Shown here in pieces: positions 2,793 through 17,765 of a stretch of DNA of 17,903 nucleotides. Source of the stretch: Myxococcota bacterium (GTDB lineage Bacteria > Myxococcota_C > UBA6777); contig JAKLKB010000170.1 in NCBI GenBank assembly GCA_023150835.1, forward strand, positions 1 to 17,903. The letters run 5' to 3'. How positions within the stretch are numbered: position 1 is the stretch's first letter; every line of letters begins with the position of its first letter. The notes beneath the pieces are model-generated. The model saw only the letters and a program-made list of their open reading frames with translations. It had not been told where the DNA came from and made no database searches. Made by a program: the position numbers and the translations under genes.

Positions 2793-4373
2793 TCAGGGAG
2801 CGTGAGCGGAGAAGTCTGAGAATCGCGCAGCTTGGCGTTGGCGTTTTCGATAGAAGTCGCGCAGATCGAGCAGAAGCAGCAAACACAGAGGGAGAAACTC
2901 AACAAGCAGGATCGCCGCAGGGAGCGCCCACTGACCGTCGATCTGTTTGAAGGAGCGGACGAGATGAGAGAGCGGGATCAACGCGAAGCATCCGAAAAGA
3001 AAGCGCGTCGGCCCGATCACCAACCAAGGCGCAAGCCAAAGCAGATACCAAGGATAAAGCGTGGGCGTGAAAAGCATATACACCGCCATCGGTAGAAACA
3101 GACGCCATCGCAGCGGGATGTGCAGAAAGGCCGATGAGATGGACGCCAGCAACACCACACTCGACAAGATCAAGCGGTTGGCTTCTTGGATCAGCCAGAT
3201 ATCGAGCAGCGTGTAAAAAGGGCCGTTAAAGTACCAATGACGGGAATAGACGCCCATCTGCTTGAGCAGGCTTCCCCATTCTTGGATGTAGGGAAGCATG
3301 ATCAAAAGTCCCGTCAGTAGGGCGGTAGCGAGCATCCGCCAGCCTTGCCGCCAGCGCAGCCACACAAAAAGCACAGGCACCCAAAAGATCGGCAAAGGCT
3401 TGATCAAGATCGTCATTGCCAGCAGCACTCCCACCGCGATACCGCGTTTCGAGGCCGCAGCAAACAAGATCCCCAACAAAAAAGGCATGGCCAAGGCGTC
3501 AAGATGCGCATCAAGGCTGATCTCCAAGATCGGCAACGGGCACCAAAGATAAAGCAACAAGCCCCCCGCTGCTTTGCCTCGGAGTTGCAACCAGTGCAGC
3601 ATCAACAAGCAAGCCACCCCCTCACACAATCCGAGTAAGACCTTCCATCCAACAAAGCCTTGGGGTTGGAGAAGATAAGCGCCCGTAAAAACCGCTTGGG
3701 CGACGGGTGGATAGACGGTCGGCATCTTGGGATGGTTGATAAAGGGGTGGATCAGGGTGTCGCGCAAGTGCATCAAATAAGGAGAGTTCGGAGGCTCCTC
3801 GTAGGGATTGAGTCCGTGCGCTTGGACTTTTCCATCCCACAAGTACCGATACGCATCGTCAGACATCGACGGATCATGCGGCCAAAGCAAGAGGCGAGAC
3901 AGGATCGCAAGGCCCACCAACGCCCACCACATCCGACATTTGGGGAGTTGGCGCGCCCACGCCACAAACGGCAAGTACAGCGCAAACAACAACAAAGACC
4001 AACGAACGTGGTTTTCTGCGTTGGGCGGATCGAGCAGCGGAAGAAAGAAAAAGGCTCCATACATCGCGGTGCTTGCGATGGCCAACCACAATAAAACAAC
4101 ATATTTCCAGTTTGAAGATCCCCTATCCTCCGATGATCTTGATTGATGTAATATTGAAGAAATCGATAGTGCCGATGATTGGGATGATTCGGATGATTGG
4201 GATGATTCGGATGATTCGGATGATTCGGATGATTCGGATGATTGGGATGATTCGGATGATTCGGATGATTCGGATGATTGGGATGATTCGGATGATTGGG
4301 ATGATTCGGATGATCGGGGATGTGTGATCTGTTCGGAGGGAGCAGGTGGTTCGGAAGAAATAGACGGGATCAT
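2793..4373 (-). CDS. GT-C fold membrane glycosyltransferase, GT87/MptB-like (DUF2029-type), with N-terminal SSE/SSQ repeat
   Basis: 526 residues from the ATG at 4373, which overlaps the TGA of the preceding lipoprotein gene (ATGA, translational coupling). A longer start at 4418 would run 49 nt into that gene and is less likely. Residues 1-88 are cytosolic, Ser-rich and disordered, including 15 tripeptides SSE/SSQ (residues 21-65). From residue ~90 on there are about ten hydrophobic segments. Loop 1 has the acidic motif SDDAYRYLWDG (residues 171-181) followed by GLNPYEEPP and the VYPPVAQ motif (~220), as in polyprenyl-phosphate-dependent GT-C mannosyltransferases (GT87 and relatives). Later segments include a 'TLYPWYLLWLAPW' motif, also typical. 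Expected role: transfer of a hexose from a polyprenyl-phosphate donor to a lipid or glycan on the periplasmic side. The acceptor and sugar are unknown. The operon context of exported proteins suggests an envelope glycan. Confidence 0.82.
   Translation of the reverse strand: MIPSISSEPPAPSEQITHPRSSESSQSSESSQSSESSESSESSQSSESSESSESSESSQSSESSQSSALSISSILHQSRSSEDRGSSNWKYVVLLWLAIASTAMYGAFFFLPLLDPPNAENHVRWSLLLFALYLPFVAWARQLPKCRMWWALVGLAILSRLLLWPHDPSMSDDAYRYLWDGKVQAHGLNPYEEPPNSPYLMHLRDTLIHPFINHPKMPTVYPPVAQAVFTGAYLLQPQGFVGWKVLLGLCEGVACLLMLHWLQLRGKAAGGLLLYLWCPLPILEISLDAHLDALAMPFLLGILFAAASKRGIAVGVLLAMTILIKPLPIFWVPVLFVWLRWRQGWRMLATALLTGLLIMLPYIQEWGSLLKQMGVYSRHWYFNGPFYTLLDIWLIQEANRLILSSVVLLASISSAFLHIPLRWRLFLPMAVYMLFTPTLYPWYLLWLAPWLVIGPTRFLFGCFALIPLSHLVRSFKQIDGQWALPAAILLVEFLPLCLLLLLDLRDFYRKRQRQAARFSDFSAHAP
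4179..4313 (-). repeat. 9-bp in-frame minisatellite (15 units) inside the glycosyltransferase gene
   Basis: Fifteen head-to-tail 9-bp units on the minus strand, TCATCCGAA or TCATCCCAA, encoding Ser-Ser-Glu or Ser-Ser-Gln. A degenerate unit (SSA) follows at 4170-4178. Unit order from the N-terminus is E Q E Q E E E Q E E E E Q E Q. Since the period is a multiple of three, copy-number change keeps the frame and only alters the length of the cytosolic N-terminal tail. Near-perfect unit identity points to recent slippage or amplification. Confidence 0.97.
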
Positions 4374-9527: not shown

Positions 9528-9550
9528 CGGGTGGTCTGTTGGTGTATCCA

Positions 9551-9725
9551 AACGGCATACAACCGACGCACCAAGGCGAAACAACGCACCGCCTATCGGA
9601 TGGTTGTGCTGGCAAACGGCATACAACCAACGCACCAAGGCGAAACAACGCACCGCCTATCGGATGGTTGTGCTGGCATCCAAACGGCATACAACCGACG
9701 CACCAAGGCGAAACAGCGCACCGCC
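9551..9725. repeat. Three-copy intergenic repeat (period 64-68 bp) with internal inverted repeat
   Basis: Copies start at 9551, 9615 and 9683, each beginning AACGGCATACAACC and running to ...ACGCACCGCC. The first two continue with TATCGGATGGTTGTGCTGGC; the third stops at about 9725. Within a unit ACAACC (9559-9564) can pair with GGTTGT (9602-9607), and GGTTGT of one unit can also pair with ACAACC of the next. The block fills most of 9528-9794, between the polyprenyl synthase and the GbsR-like gene. Open frames across it on both strands are products of the repeat and show no protein-like features. It may act as a transcript-end structure for the upstream gene. Confidence 0.9.
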
Positions 9726-12467: not shown

Positions 12468-12592
12468 CTCATTTCAACGGAAGCTCCTTGCTTTTGGGGG
12501 GGAGCCTCTTTCTTTTGAAGGCTTATCGTCTATTTTTGGACAGGGTTGTTTGGGTCGCGTTTTCTTTGGATGTTTGTGAGGGCGTTTTCGTG

Positions 12593-15112
12593 ATGGAGAA
12601 GCAAAAAAACAAGAGGCAAGGGTGGTATCGTGGCTTTTTCTTTAGCTTTTTCACAAGTTTGTGGCTTGCGTTCTTGGCCTGTGGTGATGTCCCTGTGTTG
12701 CAGCCCACGAAATTCTTTTGCAACAACACCACAGCCTGCGATACGGGCTACGTATGCCAAGGCAATGTCTGCGTCTTGGCCAGTCGGATCGAAGGAAACA
12801 GTCACACAGAAGGGACCACCGAAGGGACCACAGAGATCCCGACCGAAAAGACCACAGAGATCCCGACCGAAGGGACCACAGAGATCCCGACCGAAGCGGG
12901 CGAACCAAGCGGACCCGAAGAAACGGTTCCACCCGATTCAACCGAACCCAACCCGCAAGAAGGCTCCATCGAAGAGTCCGCACCCATCGAGCCAATCGCT
13001 GATTCGACCATCGAGCCGACCGCTGAGCCTACAGCGGAACCAACCGCCGAACCCGCCGACGAAGCGACCGCTGAGTCCGTCGACGAGCCGACCGCTGAGC
13101 CTACCGCTGAGTCCGTCGACGAGCCGACCGCTGAGCCAACCGCTGAGCCTGTATCCGACGGGAGTTCTCCAGAACCCTCCCAAGAAGTCGGACCTGACAC
13201 TTGTGTTGGACCAAGCGGCCAAAAGTGCTGTCAGAAAGCAGACGATTGCACAAGTCTTGGGCCGGGCGCGTACTGCGCACTAAACGGTTATTGCTACGCC
13301 AAAGATAAATGCACGAACTCTGATCCAAAAACTTGTCCCACGTTAGGAGATGTTTGCAAAAAAGACGGGAAGTGCGGTGATTGTGCAAACGACGGCGAGT
13401 GCGGAACAGGCGGAAAGTGCAGTCTTCAGAAACGCTGCTTTTATGATCCATGTACGAGCCCCGCTGATTGTCCGACAGGTATGGTCTGTCAGCAAAGCCG
13501 TTGTGTGGCGCTGTTGAAAAGGGATTCGTCGAATAACGTGGTGGGATGGGGAGACGGGGCCGTTGCGAAAGATTGTATGGAGTACCGCTATCCGCCCGCA
13601 GGGTACGAGGCTGCAACGCAGGACGGCGTGTACCAGATCCTCGACAAAGCAGATCAGCATTGGGTGTCCTGCAATATGACCTACGCAGGCGGCGGATGGA
13701 CGTTGACCATGAAGATCCAGAAAACAGGTTCGACATTTGATTACGATTCGCCCAAATGGGAGGACGATAAGTTGGTGTCTGCAACTCCGCAATCAAACGA
13801 CGCTCTGTTGGACGGGACAGACGCGAAACTGCGCAGCTACACCAAAGTCGGAGTCAAGCAGATCATGCTCCAGATGCAGACAGAGCCCGACGTATCGGCA
13901 TCTCCTGCCACCGAGCGCAGAAGAGCCATCTTGACGCTCGATCAAAGCAAGCCTTCTTTGATGGAGGTCATGAAAGCGCCAACGCCAGCGCTATCGGTGG
14001 GTGGCGGATTGGAGCGCCAAAACTGGCGTGCGTTGATCGGTGGTTCGGAGGTGTATTCGTACCCGTGTGCGGAGGGTCTTAAAAAAACCAAAGGAGCGAA
14101 TCTCAAGATCCGCATGGGTTTGATTTCTTCGGACGCGGTGGCTTGTACTGCAAACTTCTCGGTTCTGGGTGTGGGAGCAAAGTACGATGCCGCCGCACAC
14201 GCCATTTTTGGGGCTGGTTTTTGGCGGGGAGGGAGTCGATCGATCGTTGAAAATGTGTATGCGTATCTGTGGGTACGGGCTTTTCCTGCTTCCACACAAC
14301 CACTCGTGACGACAAGCAACGCCTTGGCCTATGGCTCCAACCAGTTCGCCAAAAGCTGTCTTGAGTATCGGACGCCACCCGCCGTCAGCGAGATCAGCGG
14401 TGAATACTGGTTGGCGGGTCCAGCAGGTTCCTATCGGACTTATTGTGATATGACCAAACATGGCGGAGGATGGACGCTTGCGCTCAAAATCAACGGGAAA
14501 GAATCTGCCTTTGCGTTTGATAACGCGGCGGCTTGGGTCAATGGTGTTCCTTCAATCAACGTAAACCAAGGTCACTCGCCTTCGACCCAAGGCAGTTTTT
14601 CACTCGCAAGCTACACCAGCCTTGCTCCACAGCAGATCATGCTGGAACAAACGGTGTTGGACATGTCGTCTGGCACGAAAGATTCGACGCTGACGAGCCT
14701 TGTGGTGCATCTCGACAATCCGAACAGCGAACCCTTGTCAAAAGTGTTTGTTTCGCCAAATCCAGCAGCGTTGCGCTTTGCGTATTCGCTCGGTGCGATG
14801 GCGTGGATGGAGTGGTTTCCCAATCCGATGGCAAAACTCCATAAAAACTGCGTCCTCGAAGGGTTTTCAAAAGAGCAATCTTGGACAACAGATATCTTCA
14901 AAAACGCAAAAGTGCGGATCGGGGCGGTCGGCCAAGAAGAGGATTGCGCAGCCCAGCCAAAAGAGACGCTTTCATGGATCGGCCTTGGCGGAACAGGAAC
15001 GGCGTGCAGTATCAACAGTAGCTGGATTGCGGGAGCTTCTTCGGGGGATTGCGGGGTGTTTGCGAGCAAGAAGCTAGATATCGTCTCCCAGACGAATCTA
15101 TATCTGCGCTGA
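12593..15112 (+). CDS. Lipoprotein with acidic repeat linker, Cys-rich region and two fibrinogen-like domains
   Basis: 839 residues from the ATG at 12593. GTG at 12590 has slightly better spacing to GAGGG; the frame is open to 12488 but the signal peptide begins here. The signal is MEKQKNKRQGWYRG, a Phe/Leu core, and lipobox FLA-C (C30), followed by a short Cys-bearing segment. Residues ~65-195 are a linker of repeats: three 24-bp units encoding TTEIPTEK/G, then many PTAE/SVDE units (~142-188). Residues ~204-304 are Cys-rich (CC, then spaced Cys pairs), as in Dickkopf/EGF-like stretches of myxobacterial secreted proteins. Two similar C-terminal domains follow. Domain 1 begins at CMEYRYPP (C328) with AGGGWTLTMKIQ (365-376). 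Domain 2 begins at CLEYRTPP (C589) with 'YCDMTKHGGGWTL' (W627). 'YCDM....GGGWT' is the hallmark of fibrinogen-like/intelectin-type ligand-binding domains. Likely a surface recognition or adhesion lipoprotein. Ligand unknown. Confidence 0.85.
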   Translation: MEKQKNKRQGWYRGFFFSFFTSLWLAFLACGDVPVLQPTKFFCNNTTACDTGYVCQGNVCVLASRIEGNSHTEGTTEGTTEIPTEKTTEIPTEGTTEIPTEAGEPSGPEETVPPDSTEPNPQEGSIEESAPIEPIADSTIEPTAEPTAEPTAEPADEATAESVDEPTAEPTAESVDEPTAEPTAEPVSDGSSPEPSQEVGPDTCVGPSGQKCCQKADDCTSLGPGAYCALNGYCYAKDKCTNSDPKTCPTLGDVCKKDGKCGDCANDGECGTGGKCSLQKRCFYDPCTSPADCPTGMVCQQSRCVALLKRDSSNNVVGWGDGAVAKDCMEYRYPPAGYEAATQDGVYQILDKADQHWVSCNMTYAGGGWTLTMKIQKTGSTFDYDSPKWEDDKLVSATPQSNDALLDGTDAKLRSYTKVGVKQIMLQMQTEPDVSASPATERRRAILTLDQSKPSLMEVMKAPTPALSVGGGLERQNWRALIGGSEVYSYPCAEGLKKTKGANLKIRMGLISSDAVACTANFSVLGVGAKYDAAAHAIFGAGFWRGGSRSIVENVYAYLWVRAFPASTQPLVTTSNALAYGSNQFAKSCLEYRTPPAVSEISGEYWLAGPAGSYRTYCDMTKHGGGWTLALKINGKESAFAFDNAAAWVNGVPSINVNQGHSPSTQGSFSLASYTSLAPQQIMLEQTVLDMSSGTKDSTLTSLVVHLDNPNSEPLSKVFVSPNPAALRFAYSLGAMAWMEWFPNPMAKLHKNCVLEGFSKEQSWTTDIFKNAKVRIGAVGQEEDCAAQPKETLSWIGLGGTGTACSINSSWIAGASSGDCGVFASKKLDIVSQTNLYLR
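12827..12898 (+). repeat. 24-bp in-frame tandem repeat (3 units) in the lipoprotein linker
   Basis: Three units starting at 12827, 12851 and 12875, each ACCACAGAGATCCCGACCGA plus a variable AAG, GGG or GCG-type end, encoding TTEIPTE plus one residue. Apart from the last codon the units are identical, so the array is young or kept homogeneous. Copy changes would only lengthen or shorten the linker. Confidence 0.95.
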
Positions 15113-15150: not shown

Positions 15151-15496
15151 ACGCCCTGTTGTTGGGCAGCCACAGCTTACAGGGGTACAAAATGCGCGCA
15201 TCACGCAGAGGATGCCGAAAAGAAGAGTCCACGGACAACGACCAACGGGAGTTGCGCGCTTCGCAAAGCACGGAAAGCACGGAAAGCACGGAAAGCACGG
15301 AAAGCACGGAAAGCACGGAAAGCACGGAAAGCACGGAAAGCACGGAAAGTATGGCGACGGGGTGATCGTCACACGATTTGTACCCTGTGGTTTGGGGGCG
15401 ACGGCAAGTACCCCTGTCAGATTACCCCCTCTGGACGGGCTTTACAGAGGATGTGTACGAGTGTTAGGCATCTGTGGCTGCCCAACAGCAGGGCGT
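15151..15496. repeat. Inverted pair of REP-like palindromes flanking a short non-coding segment
   Basis: The left arm (15151-15175, ACGCCCTGTTGTTGGGCAGC...) and right arm (15472-15496) are reverse complements over 25 nt with one mismatch. Each arm is itself a partial palindrome: GTGGCTG at 15141-15147 can pair with CAGCCAC at 15168-15174. A further nested pair is ACAGGGGTAC (~15178-15187) with GTACCCCTGT (~15408-15417). The core TTGGGCAGCCACA also occurs at 10502-10514, so this is a dispersed family. The arms enclose about 300 bp containing a 9-bp array and no gene that I can support. The whole 15113-15777 interval appears non-coding. Confidence 0.8.
15262..15351 (+). repeat. 9-bp tandem array CGGAAAGCA (8 perfect plus 2 variant units)
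   Basis: Eight perfect copies of CGGAAAGCA (15271-15342), flanked by CGCAAAGCA (15262-15270) and CGGAAAGTA (15343-15351). It gives low-complexity open frames in several phases (KHG, EST or SVL repeats), none of which looks like a real gene. It lies between the two inverted REP-like arms. Confidence 0.97.
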
Positions 15497-15505
15497 TGGC
15501 CTTTT

Positions 15506-15726
15506 GAACCGAAAACGATAGGTTTAGGGATGAGGAGAAGCGTAAACGAATCGAAAACGATAGGTTTAGGGATGAGGAGAAGCGTAAACGAATCGAAAAC
15601 GATAGGTTTAGGGATGAGGAGAAGCGTAAACGAATCGAAAACGATAGGTTTAGGGATGAGGAGAAGCGTAAACGAATCGAAGATGAGGAGAAGCGTAAAC
15701 GAATCGAAAACGATAGATTTAGGGAT
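15506..15726 (+). repeat. 42-bp tandem array directly upstream of the kinase-FGE gene
   Basis: Units start at 15506, 15548, 15590 and 15632 (full, 42 bp, virtually identical: GAATCGAAAACGATAGGTTT... then AGGGATGAGGAGAAGCGTAA plus AC). A 27-bp unit with a 15-bp internal deletion starts at 15674, and a partial last unit runs 15701-15726. Each unit holds the small palindrome TCGaaaaCGA. There are no spacers, so it is not a CRISPR. The array ends 51 bp before the kinase ATG, so it probably lies in or next to its promoter or 5' leader. Confidence 0.97.
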
Positions 15727-15777: not shown

Positions 15778-17715
15778 ATGGAGAAGAAAGCGTTGATGGA
15801 AGAGTTGGAGCAGTTGGGGAAGTTGTACCAATCGGGGGTGTTTTCACAGGCGGAGTTTGAAGCGCAACGAGCGGAGTTGTTGGAGCAATTGCGGGTGTTG
15901 CGCAGTGGGCAGACGCCGATGCCGTCGAAGGGTGGTGGAAGTGGACTCAGCCAAGTCCACGGTGCGGATGTATTGGCCACAGGCTTTGTGGGAGGGCAAG
16001 GGCAGGCGGGATTTGTGGGAGGGCAAGGGCAAACGGGGCTGGGTGTGGGCCGAGTGGTGGGGGAGCGTTATCGGTTGGTGCGGATGTTGGGGCGAGGTGG
16101 GATGGGCGAGGTGTGGTTGGCCGAAGACATCCGCTTGGGTCGGGCGTTTGCGCTGAAGTTTCTGTCCGATGCGTTGGTGGGATCATCGGAAGCGTTGGGG
16201 CGGATGCACCGAGAATATGAAGTGCTGGAAAAGCTGACGCATCCGCATATTGTGCGGGTGTTCGATATGGATCAGGACAAAGACAGCGGGCGCTGGTATC
16301 TGCGGATGGAGTATGTGGAAGGCGAAGACTTGGGGAAAAAGATCGCGGTGGTGGCGCAACAAGCCAAACGACCGTTGTTTGGGATGGATGTGATGGTGGG
16401 TTGGTTAGGGCAGCTAGTGGAGGCTTTGGATTACGCCCATCAGCAGGGGATCTTGCACCGCGATATCAAGCCCGCAAATTTGATGTTGACGACCGAACCG
16501 CAGCGATTGAAAGTGATGGATTTTGGGATAGCGCGTGTGGTCAGCGGAACGCATACGACCCAACACACCGCGATGATGGGATCGATGTACTACGCCGCAC
16601 CAGAGCTTTTGCGCGGTCAAGCGGCGACCCCAGCGGCGGATATCTATTCGTTTGGTGTGTTGGTGTACGAGATGTTGACGGGGGAACCGCCGATGGGACA
16701 TTTCGAGAAGCCGTCTTTGGTGGTGGATGGGCTTTCGGTAGAGGTGGATCGACCGCTGCTGGGGATGTTATCGCCAAACCCGACAAAACGGGGGGGCTCG
16801 TTGCGAGAGGCGTGGTCGCCGTTGCGGGATGCGCTGCTTGGAAAATCGGCAACGGTGGTTGCGCCACCCCAGCCCGCGCCAGCATCGCCAAAGATCGAGG
16901 TGATCGCACCGCCACCGCCACCGAAGATCGCGGAACCATCGGCAGGAGAGCGGCGGGTGTTTCGGGTGGGCGGGGCGGATCTTGCGATGCGCTGGATCCC
17001 TGCGGGGCGCTTCCTCATGGGCGCAGGAGCCGATGACAAGGAGGCCAATGACTACGAAAAACCGCAGCACGAAGTGACAATCACACGGGGATTTTGGATG
17101 GGGGAGGTGCCCGTCACACAGGGCCAATACCAAGCGATCACGGGCCATAATCCATCGCATTTCAAAGCGGTGGGTTTGGATGCGCCTGTGGAGCAGGTGA
17201 ATTGGCATGAAGCAGCAGCGTTTGCAAACAAGTTGTCTGCGTTGGAGGGGCTGTCGGCTTGTTTTGTGGGTAGTGGCGAACAGATGGAAGGAGTGGGAAA
17301 CAAGAGCGGCCATTACGTCGGGTGTAAGGGGTGGCGTTTACCGACGGAGGCGGAGTGGGAATATGCTTGTCGTGCGGGTGCGACAACGCCGCGTTATGGA
17401 GAGTTAGACGAGATCGCGTGGTATGGGAAGAACAGCGGCAGCACAACGCATGCTGTGGGGCAAAAACAAGCCAATGCGTGGGGGCTACACGATACGCTGG
17501 GCAATGTCTGGGAGTGGTGCTATGACTGGTTTGGTGGTTATTCGGCCCAAGCAGCTACAGACCTTGTTGGAGCAGCTACAGGCACGAACCGCGTGGTACG
17601 GGGTGGCGGTTGGCACTACCACGCTAACAGCGTGCGGGCGGCGCGGCGTTACTACGGCACGCCGACGTACCGCAACTACAACATCGGTTTCCGTGTCGTC
17701 AGGTCGAGCCCCTAA
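15778..17715 (+). CDS. Ser/Thr protein kinase (Hanks type) fused to a C-terminal FGE/SUMF1-like domain; candidate DGR target
   Basis: 645 residues; start supported by GGGAGGAAGAG before the ATG. Residues 8-40 form a SHOCT-like helical pair (LEQLGKLYQSGVFSQAEFEA). A Gly-rich linker follows, with GFVGGQGQ twice. Kinase domain ~97-355: GRGGMGEV (105-112), Lys in FALKFL (K127), HRDIKPAN (D229), DFG (248-250), APE (274-276), DIYSFGVLVYEMLTG. All catalytic residues are present, so activity is likely. The kinase C-lobe is short and followed by a Pro-rich linker (~362-385). Residues ~400-642 are an FGE-sulfatase-type C-type-lectin fold: MRWIPAGRFLMG, MGEVPVTQGQY, PVEQVNWHEAAAF, GWRLPTEAEWEYACRAG, LGNVWEWC, RVVRGGGW, IGFRVV. 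The paired Cys of true formylglycine-generating enzymes are not present in the RGGGW...GFRVV segment, so enzyme activity is unlikely. There is no membrane segment, so it is presumably cytosolic. It fits a ligand-sensing kinase whose C-terminal domain binds a partner; the 3' end looks hypervariable. Confidence 0.92.
   Translation: MEKKALMEELEQLGKLYQSGVFSQAEFEAQRAELLEQLRVLRSGQTPMPSKGGGSGLSQVHGADVLATGFVGGQGQAGFVGGQGQTGLGVGRVVGERYRLVRMLGRGGMGEVWLAEDIRLGRAFALKFLSDALVGSSEALGRMHREYEVLEKLTHPHIVRVFDMDQDKDSGRWYLRMEYVEGEDLGKKIAVVAQQAKRPLFGMDVMVGWLGQLVEALDYAHQQGILHRDIKPANLMLTTEPQRLKVMDFGIARVVSGTHTTQHTAMMGSMYYAAPELLRGQAATPAADIYSFGVLVYEMLTGEPPMGHFEKPSLVVDGLSVEVDRPLLGMLSPNPTKRGGSLREAWSPLRDALLGKSATVVAPPQPAPASPKIEVIAPPPPPKIAEPSAGERRVFRVGGADLAMRWIPAGRFLMGAGADDKEANDYEKPQHEVTITRGFWMGEVPVTQGQYQAITGHNPSHFKAVGLDAPVEQVNWHEAAAFANKLSALEGLSACFVGSGEQMEGVGNKSGHYVGCKGWRLPTEAEWEYACRAGATTPRYGELDEIAWYGKNSGSTTHAVGQKQANAWGLHDTLGNVWEWCYDWFGGYSAQAATDLVGAATGTNRVVRGGGWHYHANSVRAARRYYGTPTYRNYNIGFRVVRSSP
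17593..17715 (+). other. Putative DGR variable region (VR) at the 3' end of the kinase-FGE gene
   Basis: Codons after RGGGW are CAC TAC CAC (17614-17622), AAC AGC (17626-17631), TAC TAC GGC (17650-17658), TAC (17668-17670) and AAC TAC AAC (17674-17682). All twelve end in C and are AAC, or AAC with only A positions changed. The framework between them is A-poor (GTG CGG GCG GCG CGG CGT; ATC GGT TTC CGT). This is the pattern expected when adenines of an AAC-rich template repeat are mutated during retrohoming into an FGE-type C-type-lectin domain. Ordinary FGE-like domains also have Asn/Tyr-rich 'R..N.N.GFR' ends, so the call needs the template repeat and the reverse transcriptase, neither of which is in the window. 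Confidence 0.55.
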
Positions 17716-17716
17716 T

Positions 17717-17765
17717 TACCGTTTTCCGTTTTACCGTTTTACCGTTTGCGGCCCGATTTATCGGG
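17717..17765 (+). other. T-rich ACCGTTTT repeats and small hairpin just after the stop codon
   Basis: Right after TAA the sequence reads TTACCGTTTT, CCGTTTT, ACCGTTTT, ACCGTTT (17717-17747), four near-copies of one motif. It is followed by CCCGA-TTTA-TCGGG (17752-17756 with 17761-17765), a 5-bp stem with a 4-nt loop (extendable to CCCGAT/ATCGGG). No U-tract follows, so it is a poor intrinsic terminator. In characterised DGRs a small GC-rich hairpin lies shortly downstream of the VR and aids homing; the position here would fit. Confidence 0.45.

What the first reader, a model, noticed from the sequence alone, without database searches (positions are those of the whole stretch)
17593..17715. 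Kinase-FGE gene ends in what looks like a diversity-generating retroelement variable region
Twelve codons in the last ~120 bp (CAC, TAC, AAC, AGC, GGC) are all derivable from AAC by altering A only, with C fixed in the third position. They are spaced by an A-poor constant framework and located in the C-terminal loop of an FGE-type C-type-lectin fold, the commonest DGR target fold. If right, this is a protein kinase with a hypervariable recognition domain: ligand binding is diversified while the signalling output stays constant.
Basis: partly seen in the sequence, partly recalled or inferred. Interest (0 to 1): 0.88.

Follow-up and report, generated by a model that had tools for sequence, protein, structure and literature searches.

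The report
Kinase gene tail diversified by retroelement
The last 120 bases of this bacterial signalling-kinase gene are a real hypervariable cassette written by a diversity-generating retroelement, whose template copy sits elsewhere in the same genome; this is a known kind of system, here with a dozen scattered targets and visibly broken copying enzymes.

Summary
The window gene (15778-17715 +, SHOCT + Ser/Thr kinase + FGE/C-type-lectin domain) ends in a DGR variable region (VR, about 17582-17701). The same genome holds the template repeat (TR) on contig C185:9754-9873(-). Window and TR differ at 12/30 template A's and 1/70 other bases (p=9e-7). Including it, thirteen VRs from this genome and its sister species give 197/390 A versus 48/910 non-A (p=5e-76). 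A second DGR (C63: bAvd + RT + TR) targets a caspase-FGE gene; its ortholog in the sister species differs at 24/29 A sites and 1/72 non-A sites.

Nuances: the accessory beside the kinase TR is an HRDC protein, not Avd. Both DGR reverse transcriptases are broken in the assembled genome (one lacks about 200 N-terminal residues, the other is frameshifted before the MDD motif), and in the sister's TR locus HRDC+RT is excised. So recent diversification is shown, but current activity is not.

Kinase-lectin DGR targets with remote VRs and degenerate loci are already described in cyanobacteria and Thiohalocapsa. This is a new member of a known kind in an uncultured Myxococcota lineage.

The parts
15778..17715 (+). 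DGR target gene: 645-aa SHOCT - Ser/Thr protein kinase - FGE (C-type lectin) protein
   Evidence: ORF; Pfam SHOCT, Pkinase 3.9e-49, FGE-sulfatase 2.3e-49
16069..16704 (+). kinase domain; GxGGxG loop, ALKF lysine, HRDIKPAN, DFG and APE motifs all present, so likely active
   Evidence: Pfam PF00069 residues 98-309; motifs read in the translation
16987..17703 (+). FGE/C-type-lectin domain with TvpA fold; no cysteines in the RGGGW... segment, so not expected to be an active FGE enzyme
   Evidence: Pfam PF03781; phmmer to TvpA 2y3c E=2.8e-38; AlphaFold pLDDT 94.3; Foldseek to 2y3c E=1.7e-26, TM 0.86
17582..17701 (+). variable region (VR), homologous to the template repeat on contig C185
   Evidence: blastn 120 bp 86.7%, 87%; differences 12/30 at template A vs 1/70 elsewhere in the core
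17614..17682 (+). span of the twelve AAC-derived codons (17614, 17617, 17620, 17626, 17629, 17650, 17653, 17656, 17668, 17674, 17677, 17680)
   Evidence: codon table against the TR
17684..17715 (+). conserved 3' segment shared by VRs (GGTTTCCGTGTCGTCAGGTCGAGCCCCTA); the TR diverges after GTCA. Candidate initiation-of-mutagenic-homing site (inferred)
   Evidence: 3' end comparison of VRs and TRs
17752..17765 (.). small hairpin CCCGA[TTTA]TCGGG 50 bp after the VR, shared with four other target flanks with differing loops (TTTA, ACAA, ACCA); possible DGR cruciform or terminator, function not shown
   Evidence: single-strand folding of the region is not exceptional

Best explanation
The end of the kinase-FGE gene is a DGR variable region. 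RNA from the A-rich template repeat now on contig C185 was copied by a DGR reverse transcriptase that misincorporates opposite adenines, and the cDNA replaced the VR (mutagenic retrohoming). This changed only the AAC-type codons on the ligand-binding face of a C-type-lectin domain. The kinase in front of it is constant, so each homing event would give the same signalling output a new recognition surface. Shown here: TR, VR, A-specific substitution, DGR-type RT and accessory genes, multiple targets, TvpA fold, kinase motifs. Inferred: that the lectin domain binds a ligand and controls the kinase; that the VR was rewritten by the C185 cassette or an intact relative of it; whether that acted in cis or in trans. 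The RTs seen in the assembly are broken, so the array may now be frozen, polymorphic in the population, or served by an unassembled intact RT.
For: TR with all twelve AAC codons in the same genome. A-specific differences in 13 VRs against this TR: 197/390 vs 48/910, p=5e-76, with two VRs at 0/70 non-A (C221b; sister C293). Masked-TR pattern search: 8 hits in the genus, one of them the TR itself, 0 in reversed controls, 0 in three other family members. A second TR with its own targets: 21/29 vs 3/72 and 15/29 vs 2/72. Orthologous target pair with synteny on both sides differs at 24/29 A and 1/72 non-A VR sites while most of the gene body differs by about 1%; a second orthologous locus gives 20/30 vs 7/70. 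HRDC accessory upstream of the TR (PF00570 2.3e-17) and bAvd at the other locus (3.4e-15). RT with the DGR signature GNLTSQ, 38% identical over 206 residues to the RT of an intact VR-HRDC-TR-RT cassette (L131). TvpA is the best hit by sequence and by fold.
Against: No intact DGR RT in this assembly (93% complete) or in the sister (86%). No reads were available to show variation within the population. The window contig ends 188 bp after the gene, so its distance to the TR is unknown. Using the window VR itself as template also gives some A enrichment, as expected because it shares codons with the TR.
Confidence: 0.95

Rival explanations
1. Frozen repertoire: the DGR diversified these genes in the recent past, but the RTs have since been lost in this lineage, so the kinase now carries a fixed VR maintained by selection or drift.
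For: C185 RT lacks about residues 1-201; C63 RT is frameshifted by a short deletion just before MDD; in the sister's TR locus about 890 bp holding HRDC+RT are excised; HRDC remnants at C221 and in the sister; several VRs carry 8-11 non-A changes, i.e. are old.
Against: Two VRs match the TR at every non-A site and orthologous VRs differ at 83% of A sites, so homing went on after the two species split. In Thiohalocapsa the same appearance was in part due to population variants with intact RTs (PMC10907252).
Confidence: 0.35
2. An intact DGR RT exists in the cell but is missing from the assembly (collapsed repeat array or population variant) and acts in trans on the scattered VRs.
For: Contigs C118, C185 and C221 and the sister contigs C314, C506, C311, C293 and C424 break inside or next to near-identical target genes and flanks; recent homing; precedent in PMC10907252.
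Against: No trace of a second RT N-terminus for the TR185-type cassette in either assembly.
Confidence: 0.55
3. No DGR: paralogous FGE genes diverged by ordinary mutation and gene conversion under selection on a binding loop.
For: The genomes hold many FGE paralogs, and there is apparent gene conversion upstream of one VR.
Against: A-specificity relative to an all-AAC copy that is not part of an FGE gene, zero non-A changes in some VRs with 16/30 A changes, adjacent DGR RT and accessory genes.
Confidence: 0.01

Closest known systems
Cyanobacterial DGR variable proteins: Ser/Thr kinase grafted to a C-terminal CLec domain, with remote VPs (Vallota-Eastman et al. 2020, PMC7517822)
   Same: Same target architecture (kinase + C-terminal C-type lectin with VR), caspase-type targets too, dispersed remote targets, partly degraded cassettes
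   Different: Different phylum; an HRDC accessory for the kinase-targeting TR; both RTs broken in the assembly; SHOCT domain at the N-terminus
Thiohalocapsa PB-PSB1 DGRs (Dore et al. 2024, PMC10907252)
   Same: Several DGR classes in one genome, targets diversified in trans, kinase among the target domains, degenerate loci lacking RT parts
   Different: There each class has one complete locus and reads prove activity; here no complete locus was found and no reads were available
Treponema denticola TvpA DGR (2y3c; HRDC accessory, PMC4891356)
   Same: Same FGE-type C-type-lectin fold (best sequence and structure hit), VR at the C-terminus, HRDC accessory gene, remote targets
   Different: TvpA is the variable protein of a periodontal spirochaete and is not, to my knowledge, a kinase fusion; here the lectin domain is fused to a kinase
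Intact HRDC-type DGR cassette in a Dysgonamonadaceae MAG (L131)
   Same: FGE target VR, HRDC-like accessory, TR and RT together on one strand; A-biased TR/VR differences
   Different: RT intact; TR lies before RT there, after RT on C185

Membership tests
Diversity-generating retroelement (DGR) | Template repeat nearly identical to the VR | tested here: met
   C185:9754-9873(-), 120 bp, 87% identity to the window VR
Diversity-generating retroelement (DGR) | VR differs from TR almost only at template adenines | tested here: met
   12/30 vs 1/70 for the window; 197/390 vs 48/910 over 13 VRs
Diversity-generating retroelement (DGR) | DGR-type reverse transcriptase encoded near the TR | tested here: inconclusive
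   RT genes of DGR type lie next to both TRs (GNLTSQ motif at C63; YMDD half at C185) but both reading frames are broken
Diversity-generating retroelement (DGR) | Accessory protein (Avd or HRDC) | tested here: met
   HRDC 2.3e-17 at C185; bAvd 3.4e-15 at C63
Diversity-generating retroelement (DGR) | VR at the 3' end of a gene coding for a C-type-lectin-fold protein | tested here: met
   Best hit TvpA by sequence and fold; VR aligns with the C-terminal segment of TvpA
Diversity-generating retroelement (DGR) | IMH/IMH* difference and hairpin after the VR | tested here: inconclusive
   VR and TR 3' ends differ after GTCA; small shared hairpin 50 bp downstream in five flanks, not exceptional by folding
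Diversity-generating retroelement (DGR) | Ongoing VR variation in a population | not testable with these tools
   No reads held; sister-species comparison shows A-site divergence
Formylglycine-generating enzyme (catalytic) | Active-site cysteine pair in the C-terminal RGGSW segment (from own knowledge) | tested here: not met
   No Cys in RGGGWHYHANSVRAARRYYGTPTYRNYNIGFR

The most novel reading that the evidence does not exclude
In this Myxococcota genus the mutagenic RT is repeatedly lost while template repeats and a dozen kinase and caspase sensors are kept. The repertoire would then be diversified in bursts, by a transient or trans-acting RT, and frozen in between, with two template families sharing and exchanging targets.
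Probability: 0.3. Interest if true: 0.6.

Novelty: new member of a known kind. Interest (0 to 1): 0.5.

Why it matters
It extends DGR-diversified kinase and caspase sensors, so far described mainly in cyanobacteria and a multicellular gammaproteobacterium (in the papers read here), to an uncultured Myxococcota lineage. The two sister genomes give orthologous VR pairs alongside broken or excised RTs. That makes it testable whether such sensor repertoires are continuously mutated or diversified in bursts and then frozen.

Tried and rejected
A strict pattern for the TR with no mismatches found only the window itself; the masked TR pattern worked. Phage records held no DNA relative of the C63 RT. 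AlphaFold of the full 645-aa protein was unusable (pLDDT 47), so only the FGE domain model was used. I considered a cis arrangement of window gene + C185 cassette: the window's 3' flank matches the sister contig C506, which runs into its TR about 260 bp further on. The same flank also follows both C221 target genes, so adjacency stays unproven. I considered a split RT (C63 holds residues 1-206 in frame, C185 holds 202-end) and rejected it as likely coincidence, because the C63 RT C-terminal part is also present, out of frame. The idea that the tandem RT on C85 serves this DGR was rejected: it has no DGR motif (PQGAPTSG), scores as retron-type RT, and is family-wide although the three other family members gave no TR or masked-VR hit.

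Full report
OBSERVATION. The gene at 15778-17715 (+) encodes 645 aa with SHOCT, protein kinase and FGE-sulfatase domains. Its last ~120 bp read RVVRGGGWHYHANSVRAARRYYGTPTYRNYNIGFRVVRSSP*.

TEMPLATE. Searching the own genome (7.56 Mb, 239 contigs, 93% complete) with 17590-17715 found about a dozen related segments. One, on contig C185:9754-9865(-), reads AAC at every variable codon...GGCAGTTGG AAC AAC AAC GCC AAC AAC GTGCGGGCGGCGCAGCGT AAC AAC AAC ACGCCGACG AAC CGC AAC AAC AAC ATCGGTTTCCGTGTCGTCA. Homology to the window is 17582-17701, 120 bp, 87%.

ADENINE SPECIFICITY. In the 100-base core the window differs at 12/30 template A's and 1/70 other positions (p=8.7e-7). Thirteen VRs from this genome and its sister, the window's included, together give 197/390 vs 48/910 (p=5e-76); C221b and sister C293 have 16/30 and 0/70. 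VRs within a genome are not independent draws, so the pooled p-value is indicative only; the per-VR tests range from 1.7e-14 to 1.8e-3. A pattern with every template A set to N and up to 3 mismatches hits 6 places in this genome (one is the TR) and 2 in the sister, with none in backward controls and none in three other family members.

MACHINERY. Beside the C185 TR, on the same strand and upstream, lies an HRDC protein (PF00570, 2.3e-17) followed by an RT whose N-terminal ~200 residues are missing; the frame starts just before YMDD. A second DGR sits on C63: bAvd (PF22296, 3.4e-15), an RT with the DGR signature GNLTSQ, and a second TR. That RT loses its frame just before the MDD motif through a short deletion (about 23 nt by alignment). 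An intact relative of this class, with FGE target VR, HRDC-like accessory, TR and full RT, is on L131, a Dysgonamonadaceae MAG, and served as a control. No other DGR-type RT was found in this genome or the sister.

SISTER SPECIES. G001 is the Myxococcota MAG KLAP109 (one search shows the same contigs by name), in the same genus. Its TR on C506 keeps the flanks, but HRDC and RT, about 890 bp, are excised. Two loci are orthologous by synteny. The caspase-PEGA-FGE target C182 / sister C12 differs at 24/29 A sites and 1/72 non-A sites of the VR, while most of the upstream gene body differs by about 1% and the downstream flank by 5%; a stretch of ~180 bp just before the VR is diverged, apparently by gene conversion. 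The VR locus C58 / sister C440 differs at 20/30 vs 7/70. Homing therefore continued after the species split.

TARGETS. TR185-type VRs sit on kinase-FGE genes (C118, C120, C13, C9, and frameshifted C221b), FGE genes without another Pfam domain (C99, C39) and fragments (C211, C58). TR63-type VRs sit on caspase-PEGA-FGE genes.

FOLD. The FGE domain's best PDB relative by sequence is T. denticola TvpA (2y3c, E=2.8e-38), with the VR over the TvpA C-terminal segment. AlphaFold gives pLDDT 94.3, and Foldseek ranks 2y3c first (E=1.7e-26, TM 0.86). No cysteines remain in the VR segment, so it is a binding scaffold rather than an FGE enzyme (inference from known FGE chemistry).

MECHANISM. Shown: TR, A-specific VR, DGR RT and accessory genes, multiple targets, lectin scaffold, kinase motifs. 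Inferred: retrohoming from this TR by an intact form of its RT; ligand binding by the lectin face; control of the kinase by that binding. Unresolved: whether any intact RT remains. In Thiohalocapsa PB-PSB1 degenerate DGR loci were diversified in trans or were intact in other cells of the population (PMC10907252). The many contig breaks in target genes here leave the same possibilities open.

NOVELTY. Kinase-CLec DGR targets and dispersed remote VPs are described in cyanobacteria (PMC7517822), and multi-class DGRs with degenerate loci in Thiohalocapsa. HRDC accessories are known from T. denticola (PMC4891356). This is a clear new member of that kind, in Myxococcota, with an unusually informative state of RT decay.

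Noticed in passing
own genome C85:4035-6200(-) = L027:4035-6200: One ORF of 721 aa carries two RVT_1 domains in tandem (YIDD and YADD), retron-type by PADLOC scores; 720-723-aa versions with two RVT_1 matches occur in the sister and in three other family members. Fused twin RTs conserved across a family look unusual.
   Followed up: partly
own genome C183:40847-41464(+) = L031: RT gene (880-904 aa) followed by another large ORF and a cas1-like ORF; looks like a CRISPR-associated RT module.
   Followed up: no
L050:258-385 (sister C293): VR core matches the kinase-type TR at all non-A sites but its 3' end is AGGTACTGA, as in targets of the other TR; possible cross-homing between the two DGRs.
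   Followed up: partly
L026:8343-9113 (C63, next to its TR): The FGE gene beside the second DGR stops at the W of RGGSW (TGA) and its former VR is heavily diverged: a decayed cis target.
   Followed up: partly
L028:899-2152 (C221) and sister C177/C314: HRDC remnant followed by an Rpn/PD-(D/E)XK-like gene (recognised by eye, not by a family search) between two target genes, conserved in the sister at 97%.
   Followed up: partly
window 15506-15708, 9546-9725, 4174-4314, 15265-15349: Tandem repeats with periods of 42, 64, 9 and 9 bp; the 42-bp array lies directly upstream of the kinase gene and related repeats occur near C88 and C3.
   Followed up: no
window 12587-15112: Lipoprotein-like protein with two fibrinogen-C-like stretches after a low-complexity Thr/Glu/Pro region.
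   Followed up: no
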